A stretch of DNA of 22,378 bases from Mikrocytos mackini (taxonomy: Eukaryota; Endomyxa; Ascetosporea; Mikrocytida; Mikrocytiidae): the NCBI GenBank assembly GCA_030180075.1, contig JASNJN010000282.1:1-22378 (forward strand), read 5' to 3'. Shown here one piece after another: positions 12,179 to 20,096 of the stretch. Each line of letters opens with the position of its first letter. The stretch's first letter is position 1. Below the pieces are notes generated by a model, which was given only the letters and a program-made list of their open reading frames with translations, did no database searches and was not told where the DNA came from. A program made the translations under genes and the position numbers.

Positions 12179-12694
12179 ATGGGCAGACGTGTGGACAGAA
12201 GACTTGGCAATTTCCAGTTAATCCTCGACCAAAGGGTCTGGGTGGAAGGCGACGGAAAATTGCCCCACTCTTTGCTTCCGGACATAATTGCGGTTGACCA
12301 CAGTAGAAGGACAGTCGAACTGTTGGAAGTGGCGGTGCCTAGTGAAGACCTCATCGAAGAGAGTGAAATCCAGGAAAAGGATAAGTATCTCGAACTCGTT
12401 GAAACCCTAGGTAAACAATACGGAGGGTTCAGAGTCACCATTGGGACGTTTGCCATGGGCCAGCTAGGTTTGTTGTCACAGCAAGCTGTAGACAACTTAC
12501 ACTGGTTTATGCGCCTCACCTGCCATCGTCCCGCCCGGCGGGGCAGGACGACCCACAGGGGTCGTACCCTTGCAGTCCTCCTCAGTAAAATACAGGTGGT
12601 AGGTCTTAAAGGGTCACTGAACATCTACAAGTGGTTACGGTGTAGTGACAAAACGACAATTGAACCCGATGAGGTGGGTAGGAGTGACGTATGA
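12179..12694 (+). CDS. Non-LTR retrotransposon C-terminal (endonuclease-like) domain fragment
   Basis: An intact 171-residue ORF with GC content well above its surroundings. The core PDIIAVDHSRRTVELLEVAV (34-53), followed by EIQEKDKYLELVETLGKQYG (63-82) and a VTIGTFAMGQLG block (86-97), has the layout PD-x(n)-[DE]VAVP...EK..KY..L...G.LG. That layout is seen in the terminal domain of many LINE-like elements and resembles a PD-(D/E)XK nuclease core (P34 D35, E50). No reverse transcriptase domain is present. In-frame TGA and TAA codons lie directly upstream of the ATG, so this is a 5'-truncated copy, not a piece of a longer live ORF. Two bases after AAAA precede no strong host-type start motif. 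LINE elements of the Dong/R4 type have been reported in Microsporidia. The assignment rests on pattern memory and is moderate. Confidence 0.55.
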   Translation: MGRRVDRRLGNFQLILDQRVWVEGDGKLPHSLLPDIIAVDHSRRTVELLEVAVPSEDLIEESEIQEKDKYLELVETLGKQYGGFRVTIGTFAMGQLGLLSQQAVDNLHWFMRLTCHRPARRGRTTHRGRTLAVLLSKIQVVGLKGSLNIYKWLRCSDKTTIEPDEVGRSDV

Positions 12695-13375: not shown

Positions 13376-13436
13376 AACAAATTCCGCTGTTTTTGGATAA
13401 TTTTAAAATTATGAACACAAAAATGTCATTCATTAA

Positions 13437-13955
13437 TGAGAAAAAATTTCAAATATAAATTTCCTAATAAAAAAATTCTGAAAATCAAATTTTTTCTGGA
13501 TGAAAACAGCGTTTTTATGTTCTAATTAAAAATTTTGAAAAAAAAATTTTTTTGGATTTTCNAAGGGGGTGCATCAGGTGGTTTTCAAAAAATGTCGGAC
13601 CACAAAAACTCAAAATTCTGCATGAATTTTTTTTTGAAATTTATCTAGCAAACGTATTTTTGAGAGATCTACAAAAAATACTTTCCAAAAATTTCATAGA
13701 ATTTTCAATCAATTTAATATGAAAATTTTCGAAATTTAGGTCAAAATTCGCCTTTTTTGAGCCCTCAAGATATCAAGTATTTTTTCGAAATTTTTTCTCA
13801 AAATTGTTTTATCGTTAAGATTTCGCCCGTTAAAAGCTGTAAAAAAATTTTCAGAAAAATTTTTGTATAAAAATCATACATTTTCGTTTGCGACTTTTTG
13901 AGCCAAAATCAAAATTTTTGGTACAAAAAATTCGAAAATTTTTTTTGATAAAAAT
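13437..13955 (+). repeat. Left arm of long inverted repeat
   Basis: This arm of about 519 bp pairs with 14032-14555 in inverse orientation, with few mismatches and single-base indels. Example: GCCCTCAAGATATCAAG (13761-13777) has its exact reverse complement at 14211-14227. One 3-bp indel lies in the G run near 13,565. The ambiguous base at 13562 is within this arm. Confidence 0.9.
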
Positions 13956-14031
13956 CTCAATTTAAACACTATACATACTAAATTAACATGCCACTTGAGT
14001 TATAAAATGATTCTTGGTGAAATTTTTCGAA

Positions 14032-14555
14032 ATTTTTATCAAAAAAAAATTTTCGAATTTTTTGTACCAAAAATTTTGATTTTGGCTCAAAAAGTCGCAA
14101 ACGAAAATGTATGATTTTTATACAAAATTTTATCTGAAAAATTTTTTACGGCTTTTAACGGGCGAAATCTTAACGATAAAACAATTTTGAGAAAAAATTT
14201 CGAAAAAATACTTGATATCTTGAGGGCTCAAAAAAGGCGAATTTTNACCTAAATTTCGAAAATTTTCATATTAAATTGATTGAAAATTCTATGAAATTTT
14301 TGGAAAGTATTTTTTGTAGATCTCTCAAAAATACGTTTGCTAGATAAATTTCAAAAAAAAATTCATGCAGAATTTTGAGTTTTTGTGGTCTGACATTTTT
14401 TGAAAACCACCTGATGCCCCACCCCCTTCGAAAAATCCAAAAAAAATTTTTTTTTCAAAAATTTTAATTAGAACATAAAAACGCTATTTTAGCAAAAAAA
14501 ATTTTTTGTTCCGAAATTTTTTTATTAGGAAATTTGTATTTGAAATTTTTTTCAT
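14032..14555 (-). repeat. Right arm of long inverted repeat
   Basis: This is the inverse copy of 13437-13955, separated from it by a 76-base unpaired spacer (13956-14031). Transcription across both arms would give a hairpin RNA with a stem of about 520 bp. The arms are rich in AAAATTTTT runs and have no coding potential. The ambiguous base at 14246 lies in this arm. Confidence 0.9.
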
Positions 14556-15328: not shown

Positions 15329-15405
15329 TAGACTAATTTAAAATTTAAATTAGTCTACCCGACCCGCCCGCCCGAACCCGACCCGATCGGGTCGGGTTCG
15401 GGCGG
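15329..15405. repeat. Two adjacent perfect palindromes, one AT-rich and one GC-rich
   Basis: The first is TAGACTAATTTA (15329-15340) with TAAATTAGTCTA (15346-15357) around a 5-base centre. Ten bases later comes a 38-bp perfect palindrome (15368-15405) centred on GATC: left arm CCGCCCGAACCCGACCC, right arm its exact complement. It lies 184 bp before the hAT transposase start and may belong to the subterminal region of that element. Repeated CGGGTCGGGTT-like motifs are, from memory, common near the ends of some hAT families. Confidence 0.75.
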
Positions 15406-15589: not shown

Positions 15590-17379
15590 ATGAAAGAACT
15601 AAACGGTGTAAAAATTCTGCCTGGCCTTTATCTTACACAGTTACAGATCGATAAATTAACACTTTATAAACCCAGGTCTTCAAGCCAGGCTTGGATTAAA
15701 TTCTCATTGATTACTGGCTATGATATAGCTATCTGTGATTCATGCAACAAATTGTTCTCATATGACAGCAAGCGTATAGGTACTTCATCTATGTTATCTC
15801 ATTTGTGCAATACAGCTACAAATACACCTTCTATATTGCATTATGTCAAGGAATCTCAATTAACCCAGGAAAACAAAAAGAAATTAAACGACATCATATT
15901 TAAATACATTCTGAAAAGCTGATGCCCCCTGCGCCTTGTAGAAACCCACGAATTTTCTAATTTCTTGAAATAACTCTCCGTCTTTGTTTTCAAGAATCGC
16001 AATATAATACAGAAAGATCAAATATTTCACAGAACTACATATTCCAATATGATTCTTTCTTGCTACGAAAAAGAAAAGTCAAAGTTTATTATTTCAGTAC
16101 ATCGCCTTAAGAACTTTTCTTTATACTTTGATATTTGGACGCAGCCTGCGACTACAACCAAATATCTCTCTTTGTTTATTTCCTATATAGACGACAATTT
16201 TGAATTCAAAACTAAGAATTTAAGCACATCTGATCTTAGTATTGCAACCAAGGCCGAGATTAAAATACATATAAAAGATATTTTAACCGAATTTAACTTG
16301 AATTACAACAGTATTTCTTCTGTTGTCACTGATGCTGGATCTAATGTGAAAGATTTATTCGAAAACAAATTTAATCTTATTTGTTTTGCTCACCGAATAA
16401 ACACTGTTATAAAGGGCATTTTTGATGTTGATAACAACAAAATACATTCACTTATGAAAGCCTGTACAAACGTGTCACATATGAGTAAATTTTCTAGGTT
16501 TAAAGAAGTTGTGGGGAAAAAACTACCTTCATTGGTAATTACTCGGTGGAATTCGAGGTACATGCTATTGGTGGCTGTTCTGGACAATATAACGTTGATA
16601 AAGGAATATCTGCAAACAGAAGGACATTTTAATTTGATAAACATTCTTGATGAAATTTTAATTTCTAATTTGATAAAATTTTTGAAACCCTTCTATCTAG
16701 CAACAAAAGACGTAGAGATGCTAGACTATTCCCTATATCTTATACAACCCATTCAACATTCACTTACTACTCACATTAGGAAATCAAAGAACAGTGACGA
16801 CCGACAAATTAAGAAATTGGCAGATGAAGCAGAAAATATCTACAGGAATAAAATGAGTGTATATGACAACTGGAATTTTGATCTTCTCATGGCAACTTTT
16901 CTTCATCCTGAATATAGCAATCTTACTTGGCTTCCTAAATGGAAACAGAATGATTTTTTTAAGGCCTTGAACGTGAAAATGAAAACCATTTATCTCAAAG
17001 ACATGTCAACAGGAACTCAAGATACCGGAGATAGGAATATGGAAGTTTTAGACAATGATAATAAAGACGACGGCGAATATTTAACAAGTTTGAAAAATTC
17101 ACGATCAAAGGTTATAAAATGTAATGAAATACAAGAATATATAGCCTTAACACAAACAGTTCCCGAGGGATTGTTAAAAAGTAGCCTTACATTCTGGAAA
17201 ACATATAAAAAGACATTCCCAATTCTTTCTCAGTTATATTTAAAAGGGCGAGTGTTATGGCTTCTTCCTGCATAGTTGAAGGGCATTTCAGTAAACTAGG
17301 ATACTATCTAAATGCCAGGAAATCAAACCTGAACAAAGAAAAATTGAAGGCATATTCCTTCCTAAATGACAATAGATAA
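15590..17379 (+). pseudogene. hAT-family transposase pseudogene
   Basis: A cut-and-paste transposase, about 595 codons if read through, broken by three lesions. The first part (15590-15919) has a BED-like zinc-finger region (CDSCNKLF with GTSSMLSHLC). It ends at TGA 15920-15922. The same frame then gives PLRLVETHEFSNFLK, a conserved hAT block, and meets TAA at 15971-15973. It continues open from there to 17275 (ATG at 16049). This section has FDIWTQPATTTKYLSLFISY, VVTDAGSNVKDLF with a catalytic-type Asp, CFAHRIN, and LVITRWNSRYMLL, all in hAT order. Near 17,230-17,254 the frame shifts. The dimerisation tail (VEGHFSKLGYYLNARKSNLN) then reads in another frame to TAA 17377-17379. Host genes nearby are unrelated. 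The family is confident; the copy is inactive unless the stops are sequence errors. Confidence 0.88.
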
Positions 17380-17880: not shown

Positions 17881-17953
17881 CGTTTAATAGTAAAAGTTAT
17901 CGCGTTTAATAGTAAAGGTTATCGCGTTTTATAGTAAAGGTAATTGCGTTCAA
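17881..17953. repeat. 22-bp tandem repeat, about 3.3 copies
   Basis: The unit CGTTTAATAGTAAAGGTTATCG is repeated at 17881, 17903 and 17925, with a partial fourth unit at 17947. Copies 1 and 2 differ by one base; copy 3 has four differences from copy 2. There is no coding potential. The array is too short for a satellite and is best called a minisatellite. Confidence 0.85.
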
Positions 17954-18506
17954 TGAGAACACATGTGCACTTTTCCAAATTCAGTCGCTATCCTGTGTTT
18001 TCTGGCTTCATTTAGATGTTACTATAAGGCCTCATATGGCCCTTGGTAGCTTGTAAACTTACCCAACTGTAGAATACTTTTAGACCACTTCATTTCTTTT
18101 CCAGGGTAAGGTTTCGTATAAGTAAGTTCTGAAAGAGTGGGTATTGTAATTAATAGCTATTTCTGTAATAATCTAATACTGTACTTTTAATATCTTTGTA
18201 GGTTTACGATTGTTACCTTCGTCTATTCTCTGTGGCAACATATCAGAAAATAAAATTTAAAATCTGGAAATATTATATTTCAAATTTTGACGATATCATA
18301 CATCTATCTGTTTTGAATTTGAAGTTAAAGCTAGAATGTTTGAGCCTATTCACACCTCATATTCGAAATTTTTATAAGGGTTAATTTTCAATTTATTAGG
18401 GCATTCAGATGTTTATAAAGCATAACAACTTGTTTAAATGATTAGAAGTCCTTTTGGTGTTGTTCTGGCTCTTTCGGCATTTCCCCACAAAATGGATGGG
18501 AATTTT
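17954..18506. other. AT-rich non-coding stretch
   Basis: I see no gene, RNA or repeat in these 553 bases. The sequence ends at the TTAA that starts the piggyBac-like element. Confidence 0.35.
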
Positions 18507-19614
18507 TTAACACTTTACCTACCACAGGGGTCAATGCGACCCATAGGCCTTTCCGAAAAATGACCACATGGGTCACATTGACCCTCAGTTTCAAGGATCT
18601 GCAGACCACATGGGTCAATGTGACCCACGAAATGCTATCTGTTGCAGACGATATGGGTCATAATGACCCATATAACTTTCCATGAAAATACTAGATGGGT
18701 CATTATGACCCACAGAATTCCATCTGTTGCGGACCATATGGGTCAATATGACCCNTGTGGCAAATAATTAATTTAAATGATTTTGAACAGGCGTTTCATC
18801 TTTTAAAGGTGGAATATCACTTTGAATGAGTTAAATATACTCTTAATTTGAAAGGCATATGTGATATAAGCCCCTAGTTAGTGAATAAAACAATTATATG
18901 TGTTATTGAAATTTAACTTTCTGAAATAGCAAATTTGAAAATTGTATAGAGGCAATTGCAATATTTCTATACCAATGGCCATACCTATCAAAACTAAAGT
19001 ACGAAGTTTTGTTCTCGACCTTTTATAAAATATGAGAATTTCAAAGATAACACAGAGGAATATACACGCTCCCTTCGAACACAGCGTTTAAACTTCAATA
19101 AATCAACCATTGGCACCAAAACAAAGCGATCATCATAACATAATAATAAAGATTGTTCATTGTGTACTCTTCTGCCGTGCAGTTACAATAAATTACACAT
19201 TTTATGACGGATTTACTGCAAATGGGGATATGTGATGCGAATCCGAACAACACATGGGCATGTTGAGTTTTACAGTTTAACGGGGAAGTATTGACCATAT
19301 CCAAGGATTTAGGAATTGTGTACATAAAATTTTGTGAGATACTAGGACAGAGAAACTAATTAAATAATATATATTGAATATAACATATAATTAACTTGTT
19401 TTTGCATAAAATGGAAACATGTTTTTTGTTATTAGATTTTATTGGTTTTTAGATTTATGTTACAAAACTGAAAAAAAATCCCTGCAATTTTCTTATTTTG
19501 ACATTTATGAAAAACCCAAATATTCGATATGTCTCATTTAAGATCACTACAACACTATGGTATGTTTGGTTAGACTCTCGGAATGCTATATTTCTGTAGT
19601 CCGTAAAGTGTTAA
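18507..19614. mobile_element. Putative piggyBac-like non-autonomous element
   Basis: TTAACACTTTACCTACCACAG at 18507-18527 is matched in inverse orientation by CTGTAGTCCGTAAAGTGTTAA at 19594-19614 (18 of 21 positions, the first 12 identical). Both include TTAA, the piggyBac target site, followed by a C-rich CACTTTAC start resembling piggyBac termini. The span is 1,108 bp. It holds the dyad array at its left end and otherwise no convincing ORF, so it would be a deleted or MITE-like copy. An alternative right boundary is the TTAA at 18768-18771, which would give a 265-bp element consisting almost wholly of the dyad array. piggyBac elements have been reported in Microsporidia. The assignment is by inference. 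Confidence 0.5.
18528..18754. repeat. Array of six GGGTCA-N3-TGACCC dyads
   Basis: Six 15-bp inverted repeats start at 18528, 18570, 18612, 18655, 18697 and 18740. Five are perfect GGGTCA-N3-TGACCC; the first ends in CGACCC. Start-to-start distances are 42, 42, 43, 42 and 43 bp, close to four DNA helical turns, so all dyads face the same side of the helix. The N3 centres and the linkers vary. Linkers are of two loose types; the ATCTG-TTGC-GAC type recurs 85 bp apart (18637 and 18722). This looks like an ordered binding-site array or a palindrome-based minisatellite. Confidence 0.92.
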
Positions 19615-19658
19615 ACATTTAAAACTCTCCCATATTATTTTAAACAAAAAATAAGGCT

Positions 19659-20096
19659 CTAGAAAAAGCAAATCTGAGGTGAATTAAAACTAAAACGCTT
19701 CCAAATATATATCAACATAACATGTCGGTAGACCCGAAACCGCCCGACCCGATTCGGTTCGGGTCGGGTCCAGAAAACGTCGAAAATACTCATGTCTGCC
19801 TTAAACACACATCCGAGTTTCTTAGTAAATGTGTTTCTACCATTCCCTTTCGTTACATACTCACGACATCCATACTCACATGTTAGCGTCAAATTGTAGT
19901 ACTTTAGACGGGCTCTAGTAGCCTCAATATCGCTTACTGTGCTCGGTATCTTCCTCATCGTCTGGAATGGCTTACTGTTTTTCTTCTCTAACCGTATGTT
20001 CTGTTCCTTCTCATACACCTTTACATGGTCTTCAAGTTTTTTATAAGAATCAAACTTAGCCCCGAGCGTAAACCATTCATTTGTTATGTCAATCAT
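19659..20096 (-). pseudogene. Truncated N-terminus of a Mutator-like (MULE) transposase
   Basis: The frame has 145 codons, of which about the first 107 (20096 down to about 19776) look like transposase. FDSYKKLEDHVKVYEKEQNI (about 15-34), ATRARLKYYNLTLTCEYGC (about 60-78) and GRNTFTKKLGCVFKADMSIF (about 86-105) follow the FAR1-like/MULE N-terminal DNA-binding pattern: F-x-SYxxLE, LKYYxLxxxCxxG, then a GCxFxI-type end. The following residues are encoded by the CCCGACCCGA palindrome and AT-rich sequence, so the real gene is cut there. The catalytic DDE domain is absent from the window as far as I can see. ACGTTTTAAATTTT abuts the ATG, a host-type start signal. It is a dead fragment. The family assignment is reasonably strong. 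Confidence 0.65.
19743..19768. repeat. CCCGACCCGA palindrome within the MULE remnant
   Basis: CCCGACCCGA (19743-19752) and TCGGGTCGGG (19759-19768) are exact inverse copies around TTCGGT. It is a second member of the GC-rich palindrome family seen at 15368-15405, and it interrupts the minus-strand transposase reading frame. Confidence 0.8.

What the first reader, a model, noticed from the sequence alone, without database searches (positions are those of the whole stretch)
18528..18754. Six GGGTCA-N3-TGACCC dyads phased at four helical turns
The dyads start 42, 42, 43, 42 and 43 bp apart. The core is kept in all copies while the N3 centre and the linkers drift. That pattern suggests selection on the dyad and on its spacing, as for cooperative binding of a dimeric protein along one DNA face. 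A simple minisatellite would be expected to conserve linkers as well as cores. A nuclear-receptor-like half-site (GGGTCA) in a genome that lacks such receptors points to a transposase or an unknown DNA-binding protein.
Basis: partly seen in the sequence, partly recalled or inferred. Interest (0 to 1): 0.85.

Follow-up and report, generated by a model that had tools for sequence, protein, structure and literature searches.

The report
Phased transposase sites at piggyBac end
Six evenly spaced mirror-image DNA motifs are very probably docking sites for pairs of "cut-and-paste" enzyme molecules at one end of a small piggyBac-type jumping gene, and the same array, with up to ten sites, recurs on related elements in this oyster parasite's genome.

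Summary
Six GGGTCA-N3-TGACCC dyads (five exact, one with one mismatch) start 42, 42, 43, 42 and 43 bp apart. They lie just inside the left end of a 1,108-bp non-autonomous piggyBac-type element, TTAA-CACTTTAC...GTAAAGTG-TTAA, window 18507-19614. A 98.8% copy elsewhere in the genome has the same TTAA boundaries. Its right end has no dyad.

In the held genome the arrays recur: 31 arrays (some near-identical copies), 147 dyads, 114 of 116 spacings 42 or 43 bp. In 29 of 38 arrays or single sites the outer dyad starts exactly 17 bp after TTAA, so its centre is bp 25, where the cysteine-rich domains of piggyBac transposase bind their palindrome. A relative with the same kind of left end, C8:9415-17021 (7.6 kb), carries an open 572-aa piggyBac transposase.

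Best reading: each dyad, with a conserved GGAC-like motif before it, seats one transposase dimer, as in piggyBat's three 44-bp units, but here in longer arrays. Binding itself is untested. The organism is probably Mikrocytos mackini. New variant of a known kind.

The parts
18507..19614 (+). Whole non-autonomous piggyBac-type element, 1,108 bp counting both TTAAs; no ATG-started ORF longer than 76 aa
   Evidence: 98.8% copy C107:38404-39508 with the same TTAA boundaries; different flanks; ORFs
18507..18510 (+). TTAA, left target-site copy
18511..18527 (+). Left tip, 17 bp (CACTTTACCTACCACAG)
   Evidence: 14 of 17 identical to the right tip (by eye)
18528..18542 (+). Dyad 1 (one mismatch), bp 18-32 from the tip, centre bp 25
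18570..18584 (+). Dyad 2, exact
18612..18626 (+). Dyad 3, exact
18655..18669 (+). Dyad 4, exact
18697..18711 (+). Dyad 5, exact
18740..18754 (+). Dyad 6, exact; followed by one unresolved base N at 18755
18561..18565 (+). GGAC-like motif (-9 to -5) before dyad 2; the same relative place before dyads 3-6: 18603-18607, 18646-18650, 18688-18692, 18731-18735
   Evidence: A at -7 in 23/23 and C at -6 in 19/23 linkers of the non-redundant set (two of the 23 are not independent)
18755..19593 (+). Interior without evident coding capacity; its right part (19073-19615) is 80% like C580
19594..19610 (-). Right tip, 17 bp (CACTTTACGGACTACAG read inward): GGAC at bp 9-12, no dyad within 300 bp (best candidate has 5 mismatches)
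19611..19614 (+). TTAA, right target-site copy

Best explanation
The six dyads are the left-end transposase-binding array of a non-autonomous piggyBac-type transposon. Shown: element boundaries at TTAA, fixed position of the outer dyad, fixed 42/43-bp spacing, better preserved cores than linkers between subfamilies, no dyad at the right end of the window element, and a related element with an open piggyBac transposase. Inferred: each unit (GGAC-like motif for the transposase core, then the 15-bp dyad for a pair of C-terminal cysteine-rich domains) seats one transposase dimer. Four helical turns put the dimers on one face of the DNA. The outermost dimer sits over the cleavage site and is catalytic. 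The inner dimers are non-catalytic and help capture the dyad-less right end, as the inner dimer does in piggyBat; surplus inner sites may instead damp activity, as piggyBat's third site does. The window element would be mobilised in trans by the C8-type transposase or a relative.
For: TTAA on both sides with matching inverted tips and a 98.8% copy at another locus ending at the same TTAAs. Outer dyad 21 nt from the start of TTAA in 29 of 38 arrays or single sites, 20 nt in 2, 46 nt in 1, no TTAACA within 60 nt in 6. 114 of 116 spacings 42 or 43. Lined up from TTAA: core 7/60, N3 9/15, all linker sites 44/109 changed, C8 vs window element. C8:9415-17021: dyad left end, TTAACACTTT right end, open 572-aa ORF hitting PF13843 at 6e-78 and the PDB piggyBat and piggyBac transposases at 4e-45 and 2e-31, with the D residues of the catalytic motifs aligned. 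T. ni piggyBac: CRD dimer on bp 17-33, minor groove narrowed at about bp 25, TGCGTAAAATTGACGCA in its left-end oligonucleotide; 5 bp inserted into the right end lowered activity by about half (PMC7351741, passages). piggyBat: motif plus palindrome at 44-bp intervals on the left end, no palindrome on the right (PMC11707139, passages).
Against: No binding or transposition data. Only one element family (C8 with its copy C484 and partial copies C112, C136, C4) joins dyads and transposase. C484's homology to C8 stops before the array and its open frame is shorter (458 against 574 aa). I found no autonomous partner for the other subfamilies, but not every contig was read. In C8 itself five of six dyads have 1 or 3 mismatches. 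Between very close copies the cores are not protected: C394 vs C418 has 5/60 core and 0/109 linker changes (p 0.005), three of the five in the fifth dyad, next to where the C394 array ends; C253 vs C107 1/60 and 0/109. C394:20021-20509 has dyads beside tips at both sides, so 'left end only' is not universal. The transposase's cysteine-rich tail matched neither solved CRD in PDB at E up to 1. Near-identical units and whole-unit losses show that unit copying explains part of the regularity. The arrays were found by their dyads, and the reduced indel rate rests on few independent pairs.
Confidence: 0.86

Rival explanations
1. An ordinary minisatellite that arose by slippage inside a transposon end, with no role for the sites; spacing is kept only because units are copied whole.
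For: Near-identical units in C59, C446 and C514, and whole-unit losses between close copies: C95 3 vs C428 5, C456 2 vs C547 5, C197 4 vs C125 5. No protection of cores between the closest copies (C394 vs C418).
Against: Between subfamilies, cores are much better kept than linkers in arrays lined up from TTAA (families A, C and D, family B not included). Of 24 linkers non-redundant by my rule, 23 give 42 or 43 bp; two of them repeat C125, leaving 21 of 22. Same-length pairs of linkers average 45% identity (123 of 276 pairs). Indel events per substitution: 26/403 in eight element-interior alignments against 6/526 in 19 array alignments, those six all in the three pairs with C464. The motif at -7/-6 is conserved.
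Confidence: 0.08
2. The dyads bind a host or regulatory protein (for example a repressor of the transposase gene or a chromatin factor), not the transposase; the element spreads with them as passenger sites.
For: The binding protein is unidentified. In C8 the array lies about 3.2 kb beyond the transposase stop codon, so nothing ties it physically to the gene's own product.
Against: The outer dyad has a fixed register to the TTAA that coincides with the piggyBac CRD site; the window element keeps the array without a gene; the dyads read here lie mostly beside TTAA tips.
Confidence: 0.04
3. The palindromes act as hairpins or cruciforms (structure rather than sequence recognition).
For: Perfect 6-bp arms; piggyBac-like inner inverted repeats have been discussed as possible hairpin or cruciform formers (PMC12324416, passage).
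Against: Arms keep their sequence: in the non-redundant set 22-23 of 23 dyads have the same base at 11 of 12 arm positions and 19 at the twelfth (dyads were found by sequence, so this is biased), and single-arm changes without compensation occur, for example in C8. The fixed four-turn spacing is not needed for cruciforms.
Confidence: 0.02

Closest known systems
Trichoplusia ni piggyBac (LE35/RE63)
   Same: TTAA target, short inverted tips, palindrome within bp 17-33 (about bp 25) bound by a dimer of C-terminal cysteine-rich domains (PMC7351741, passages). The piggyBac 15-mer GCGTAAAATTGACGC, read on its other strand, agrees with GGGTCAATATGACCC at 11 of 15 positions (compared by eye).
   Different: piggyBac has one such palindrome on each end, asymmetrically placed; here 1 to 10 stand at the left end in 42/43-bp steps and none in the right ends scanned (window, C107, C8, C184), though C394:20021-20509 has dyads beside both tips. 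An added left-end site about doubled piggyBac integration in cells (same paper).
piggyBat of Myotis lucifugus
   Same: Left end made of repeated units, each a core motif a few bp before a palindrome (44-bp steps, three units); no palindrome on the right end (PMC11707139, passages); nearest solved transposase by sequence.
   Different: Palindrome and motif sequences differ; six or more units instead of three; step 42-43 instead of 44. Removing piggyBat's third unit raised activity about 6-9 fold (same paper).
Human PGBD3 and its MER85 derivatives
   Same: Palindrome 3 bp inside the 5' tip needed for transposase binding; short non-autonomous copies keep it (PMC3459987, passages).
   Different: 16-bp palindrome of another sequence; three palindromes far apart in PGBD3, one in MER85, not in a phased array.
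Subterminal repeat arrays of other superfamilies (Tol2, Tag1, Ac, Tn7; seen only as cited in PMC11707139)
   Same: Several transposase sites inside the ends, thought to help synapsis.
   Different: Unrelated families; short repeats not in the form of dyads at a four-turn step (recalled).

Membership tests
piggyBac superfamily | Insertion at and duplication of TTAA | tested here: met
   TTAA at both ends of the window element and of C107, with different flanks; same for C8
piggyBac superfamily | Short terminal inverted repeats | tested here: met
   Tips CACTTTACCTACCACAG and CACTTTACGGACTACAG, 14 of 17 identical
piggyBac superfamily | DDE_Tnp_1_7 transposase encoded by the element | tested here: not met
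   The window element has no ORF over 76 aa, so it is at most a non-autonomous member; the related C8 element does encode one (PF13843 6.4e-78)
piggyBac superfamily | Catalytic DDD in the related autonomous element | tested here: met
   D in IDES, TDNF and GVDVSD of C8 aligns with the piggyBat and piggyBac chains; residue numbers of piggyBat from PMC11707139 (passage), mapping by eye
piggyBac superfamily | C-terminal cysteine-rich domain | tested here: inconclusive
   C-x2-C...C-x2-C...C-x2-C-F pattern in C8, but the profile of nine tails did not match the solved CRDs at E up to 1
piggyBac superfamily | Seamless excision | tested here: inconclusive
   C310 is a related site without the element; left flank 82% alike up to TTAA, right flank alike only from about 24 bp beyond the right TTAA
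piggyBat-type left end | Core motif plus palindrome repeated on the left end at a fixed step near 44 bp | tested here: met
   GGAC-like motif and dyad at 42/43 bp
piggyBat-type left end | No palindrome on the right end | tested here: met
   No dyad with fewer than 5 mismatches in the first 300-400 bp of four right ends, two of them copies of one element; exception in the family: C394:20021-20509 has dyads beside both tips
piggyBat-type left end | Transposase dimers occupy each unit | not testable with these tools
   Needs purified protein
Minisatellite without function | Linkers conserved like cores | tested here: not met
   Between subfamilies. Exceptions: near-identical linkers within C59, C446, C514, and the closest copies C394 vs C418, where linkers are better kept than cores

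The most novel reading that the evidence does not exclude
The left-end array works as one unit: six to ten transposase dimers on one DNA face, each bending the DNA the same way by the 40-60 degrees reported for piggyBac and piggyBat, so that the bends add up to most of a circle. The left end would be spooled into a near-closed arc that presents the single catalytic dimer to the dyad-less right end, and the number of dyads, which changes by whole units between copies, would set activity or self-limitation.
Probability: 0.25. Interest if true: 0.72.

Novelty: new variant of a known kind. Interest (0 to 1): 0.52.

Why it matters
piggyBac-type transposons are used as gene-delivery tools, and how many transposase sites an end should carry is unsettled: an added left-end site about doubled piggyBac integration, while the third left-end site depresses piggyBat. 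Here one genome holds a natural series of the same kind of end with 1 to 10 sites in a strict four-turn step, in several subfamilies. That series makes the question testable by comparison, and shows which features (dyad core, GGAC-like motif, register to the tip, spacing) are kept while linkers drift.

Tried and rejected
Microsporidian origin: my first guess from gene content, dropped when the window's eEF2 proved identical (871 aa) to GAHX01000192.1, GAHX01 being listed as the Mikrocytos mackini transcriptome (PMC9998036, passage).

Automatic pairing of TTAA ends around 30 transposase loci gave mostly AT-rich chance pairs and nothing used; comparing near-identical copies gave the boundaries instead. 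C184 was first taken as a second autonomous element (dyads and an open transposase on one contig), but a TTAACACTTT end 1,239 bp from its left end suggests that the dyads belong to a short element. A right end for C8 at 1,324 bp was considered and dropped when copies proved to match well beyond it.

Searches outside: the dyad pair at 41-44 bp was found in 1 stretch of viral contigs and 3 of prokaryote genomes. These are single pairs, L103 with a third site 301 bp on; one search found no TTAAC or GTTAA from 150 bp before to 250 bp after them. I take them as unrelated. The CRD profile against PDB gave nothing usable. Structure prediction was not attempted: proteins from genome-search loci are not on that tool's list.

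Paper searches: 31 papers held one of four strings, 20 were listed, and each of those held only the tip string, no dyad string. Searches (20 of 25 listed; 20 of 24; 6 of 6; 20 of 28; 11 of 12) listed no report of phased dyad arrays in piggyBac ends that I recognised from titles and abstract beginnings. The main texts of two papers on Ascetosporean genomes contain no 'piggyBac'. No paper was read whole.

Limits of my counts. The 95% core identity is biased because dyads were found by their core; searches are the fairer comparison, though the arrays themselves were found by dyads and family B was left out. The 116 spacings include near-identical copies. Two of the 24 'non-redundant' linkers repeat C125 (C197 with unresolved bases; C394 the same linker read from the other side, seen by eye; for C197). 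In one search the four array pairs of the indel test were chosen by me and leave out C464, which has a 1-bp deletion; other 1-bp changes seen are C313 and C523 (tips), C259 and C59.

Full report
WHAT IS THERE. The six dyads are real and placed as stated: starts 18528, 18570, 18612, 18655, 18697, 18740; five exact, the first with one mismatch; 7 matches in the window with up to 2 mismatches against 0.35 expected. The seventh, at 12540, lies outside the array.

WHERE THEY SIT. Inverted sequences 18501-18527 and 19594-19620 bracket the array and hold TTAA at 18507-18510 and 19611-19614. A 98.8% copy at C107:38404-39508 begins and ends at the same TTAAs and has other flanks. So the array is the left end of a 1,108-bp TTAA-bounded element. 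The tips, CACTTTACCTACCACAG and CACTTTACGGACTACAG, are alike in 14 of 17 positions. The right end has no dyad: the best candidate in 300 bp has 5 mismatches. The element has no ATG-started ORF over 76 aa. A related site without the element, C310, is 82% alike up to the left TTAA, but its right flank is alike only from about 24 bp beyond the right TTAA, so it is weak support for an insertion.

THE SAME ARRAY ELSEWHERE. The own genome (13.6 Mb, 733 contigs held) has 163 dyads with at most one mismatch against 5 for the reversed control, and 88 exact ATA/TAT-centred ones against 0. I read 38 arrays or single sites, not all 163 sites. In 29 of 38 the outer dyad begins 21 nt from the start of TTAA, in 2 at 20 nt, in 1 at 46 nt, and in 6 no TTAACA was found within 60 nt; of those six, C259 and C288 have a tip in place behind a changed TTAA (by eye). 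In 31 arrays with 147 dyads (102 exact, 34 with one mismatch, 11 with two or three), the 116 spacings were 43 (61), 42 (53), 44 (1) and 35 (1); near-identical copies are included, and the last two involve dyads with three mismatches. Arrays hold up to ten dyads (C59). Subfamilies mostly share TTAACACTTT or TTAACACTAT and the dyads but differ in tip and linkers.

SELECTION ON CORE AND SPACING. Arrays lined up from TTAA without gaps differ as follows: C8 vs window, core 7/60, N3 9/15, linkers 44/109; C59 vs C446, core 1/48, linkers 27/84; C253 vs C394, core 4/60, linkers 24/109; C125 vs C288, core 1/60, linkers 8/108 (Fisher p 9e-5, 1e-5, 0.01, 0.16). Family B was not included in that test. Twenty-four linkers non-redundant by my rule give 42 or 43 bp in 23 cases; two of them repeat C125, leaving 21 of 22. 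Same-length pairs among them average 45% identity (123 of 276 pairs). Indel events per substitution were 26/403 in eight element-interior alignments and 6/526 in 19 array alignments, all six in the three pairs with C464. These pairs share sequences and are not independent. A second motif precedes the dyad: A at -7 in 23/23 and C at -6 in 19/23 linkers of the set. The window and C8 right tips carry GGAC at the same distance from the end (bp 9-12; sequences).

AGAINST. Between the closest copies the cores are not protected: C394 vs C418 shows 5/60 core and 0/109 linker changes (p 0.005). Three of the five lie in the fifth dyad, next to where the C394 array ends, so a junction may be at work, but two do not. 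C253 vs C107 shows 1/60 and 0/109, C8 vs C136 1/60 and 1/109. This fits neutral change after insertion only loosely, and is the plainest result against my reading. Units in C59, C446 and C514 are near-identical, and close copies differ by whole units: C95 3 vs C428 5, C456 2 vs C547 5, C197 4 vs C125 5. Unit copying therefore occurs and preserves phase by itself. C8, the only element with a transposase in cis that I found, has rather worn dyads (1 or 3 mismatches in five of six).

THE TRANSPOSASE. The genome has 66 matches to PF13843, fragments included. C8:9415-17021 (7,607 bp) has a dyad left end, a TTAACACTTTCAGGACTATAA right end and an open 572-aa transposase. Its copy C484:1804-9117 is 99.5% alike and stops within 3 bp of the same right TTAA; its homology ends 48 bp before the array, and its open frame is shorter (458 against 574 aa). 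C112, C136 and C4 share the left end at 99.4-99.6%. The protein hits PF13843 (6.4e-78) and, in PDB, piggyBat (4e-45) and piggyBac (2e-31) transposases. Its tail has the cysteine pattern C-x2-C...C-x2-C...C-x2-C-F, but a profile of nine such tails found neither solved CRD at E up to 1. Database relatives, as far as listed (120 of 280), are mostly unnamed and, where an organism is given, insects, at 30-41% identity.

HOW IT PROBABLY WORKS. In T. ni piggyBac the two CRDs of a dimer bind a palindrome within bp 17-33, narrowing the minor groove at about bp 25 and bending DNA about 40 degrees. Five bp inserted in the right end, meant to disturb phased binding of two dimers, lowered activity by about half, and a further left-end site about doubled integration (PMC7351741, passages). 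Here the outer dyad occupies bp 18-32, centre bp 25. In piggyBat the left end has three units, each GCGGGA and, a few bp on, a palindrome, 44 bp apart; the right end has no palindrome; two units are best and the third restricts activity (PMC11707139, passages). Its transpososome is a tetramer with a catalytic outer and an inactive inner dimer (preprint PMC13405395, passages). The anatomy here is the same plan with more units, and I infer the same mechanism: one dimer per unit, all on one face, the outermost catalytic, the inner ones serving synapsis or restraint. That step is inference; the anatomy is shown.

ORGANISM. eEF2 in the window is identical over 871 aa to GAHX01000192.1, and GAHX01 is listed as the Mikrocytos mackini transcriptome (PMC9998036, passage). 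That species (Rhizaria, Ascetosporea) has a transposon-rich genome (PMC10245619, passages); the word piggyBac does not occur in the main text of that paper or of PMC11069148.

CURIOSITIES OF THE FAMILY. At C394:20021-20509 five dyads lie between two inward-facing tips, each 17 bp from its nearest dyad, and about 260 bp of other DNA interrupt the third dyad. C288 looks like a sibling without the interruption. C511:9358-9414 is a 57-bp palindrome, perfect but for its three central bases: TTAA, 17-bp tip, one dyad, the same tip inverted, TTAA. The right flanks of these three loci are alike and the left ones are not (by eye), so whether they are miniature elements or parts of a larger one is unresolved.

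VERDICT. An ordinary kind of object, a non-autonomous piggyBac-type end, with an unusual and informative build: long, strictly phased arrays of presumed transposase-dimer sites. New variant of a known kind.

Noticed in passing
G000 C511:9358-9414 (locus L095): A 57-bp palindrome (perfect but for its three central bases) made of two TTAA-tips sharing one dyad; possibly a very small derivative of the family or a relic of an aberrant event.
   Followed up: partly
G000 C394:20021-20509 (locus L076) and C288:19127 onward (L073): Five-dyad array with inward-facing tips on both sides; in C394 the third dyad is split by about 260 bp bounded by TGTCGG...CCGACA, with ATATT on both sides.
   Followed up: partly
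G000 C394:5559 and C418:4682 (loci L041, L038): Near-identical left ends whose differences fall in the dyads (5/60) and not in the linkers (0/109); unexplained.
   Followed up: partly
window 13436-14555: Large foldback: 382-nt arms 98% complementary with 95 nt between; related sequence in C15.
   Followed up: no
window 15590-17275: Two adjacent ORFs that look to me like a degraded hAT-type transposase (only a weak Dimer_Tnp_hAT hit, E 0.048, for the second).
   Followed up: no
window 15360-15405 and 19726-19769: GC-rich ACCCGACCCGA-type sequences 4.3 kb apart in inverted orientation in an AT-rich region; unexplained.
   Followed up: no
window 19659-20096 (-): 145-aa ORF with a sub-threshold ZSWIM3_N match (E 0.00088); perhaps a remnant of another transposon.
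   Followed up: no
window 17881-17954: Short tandem repeat, 22-bp unit, 3.4 copies.
   Followed up: no
loci L102, L103, L104 (bacteria) and L101 (viral contig): Single pairs of the same dyad 41-44 bp apart without TTAA tips; L103 has a third site 301 bp on. Probably unrelated; chance was not computed.
   Followed up: partly
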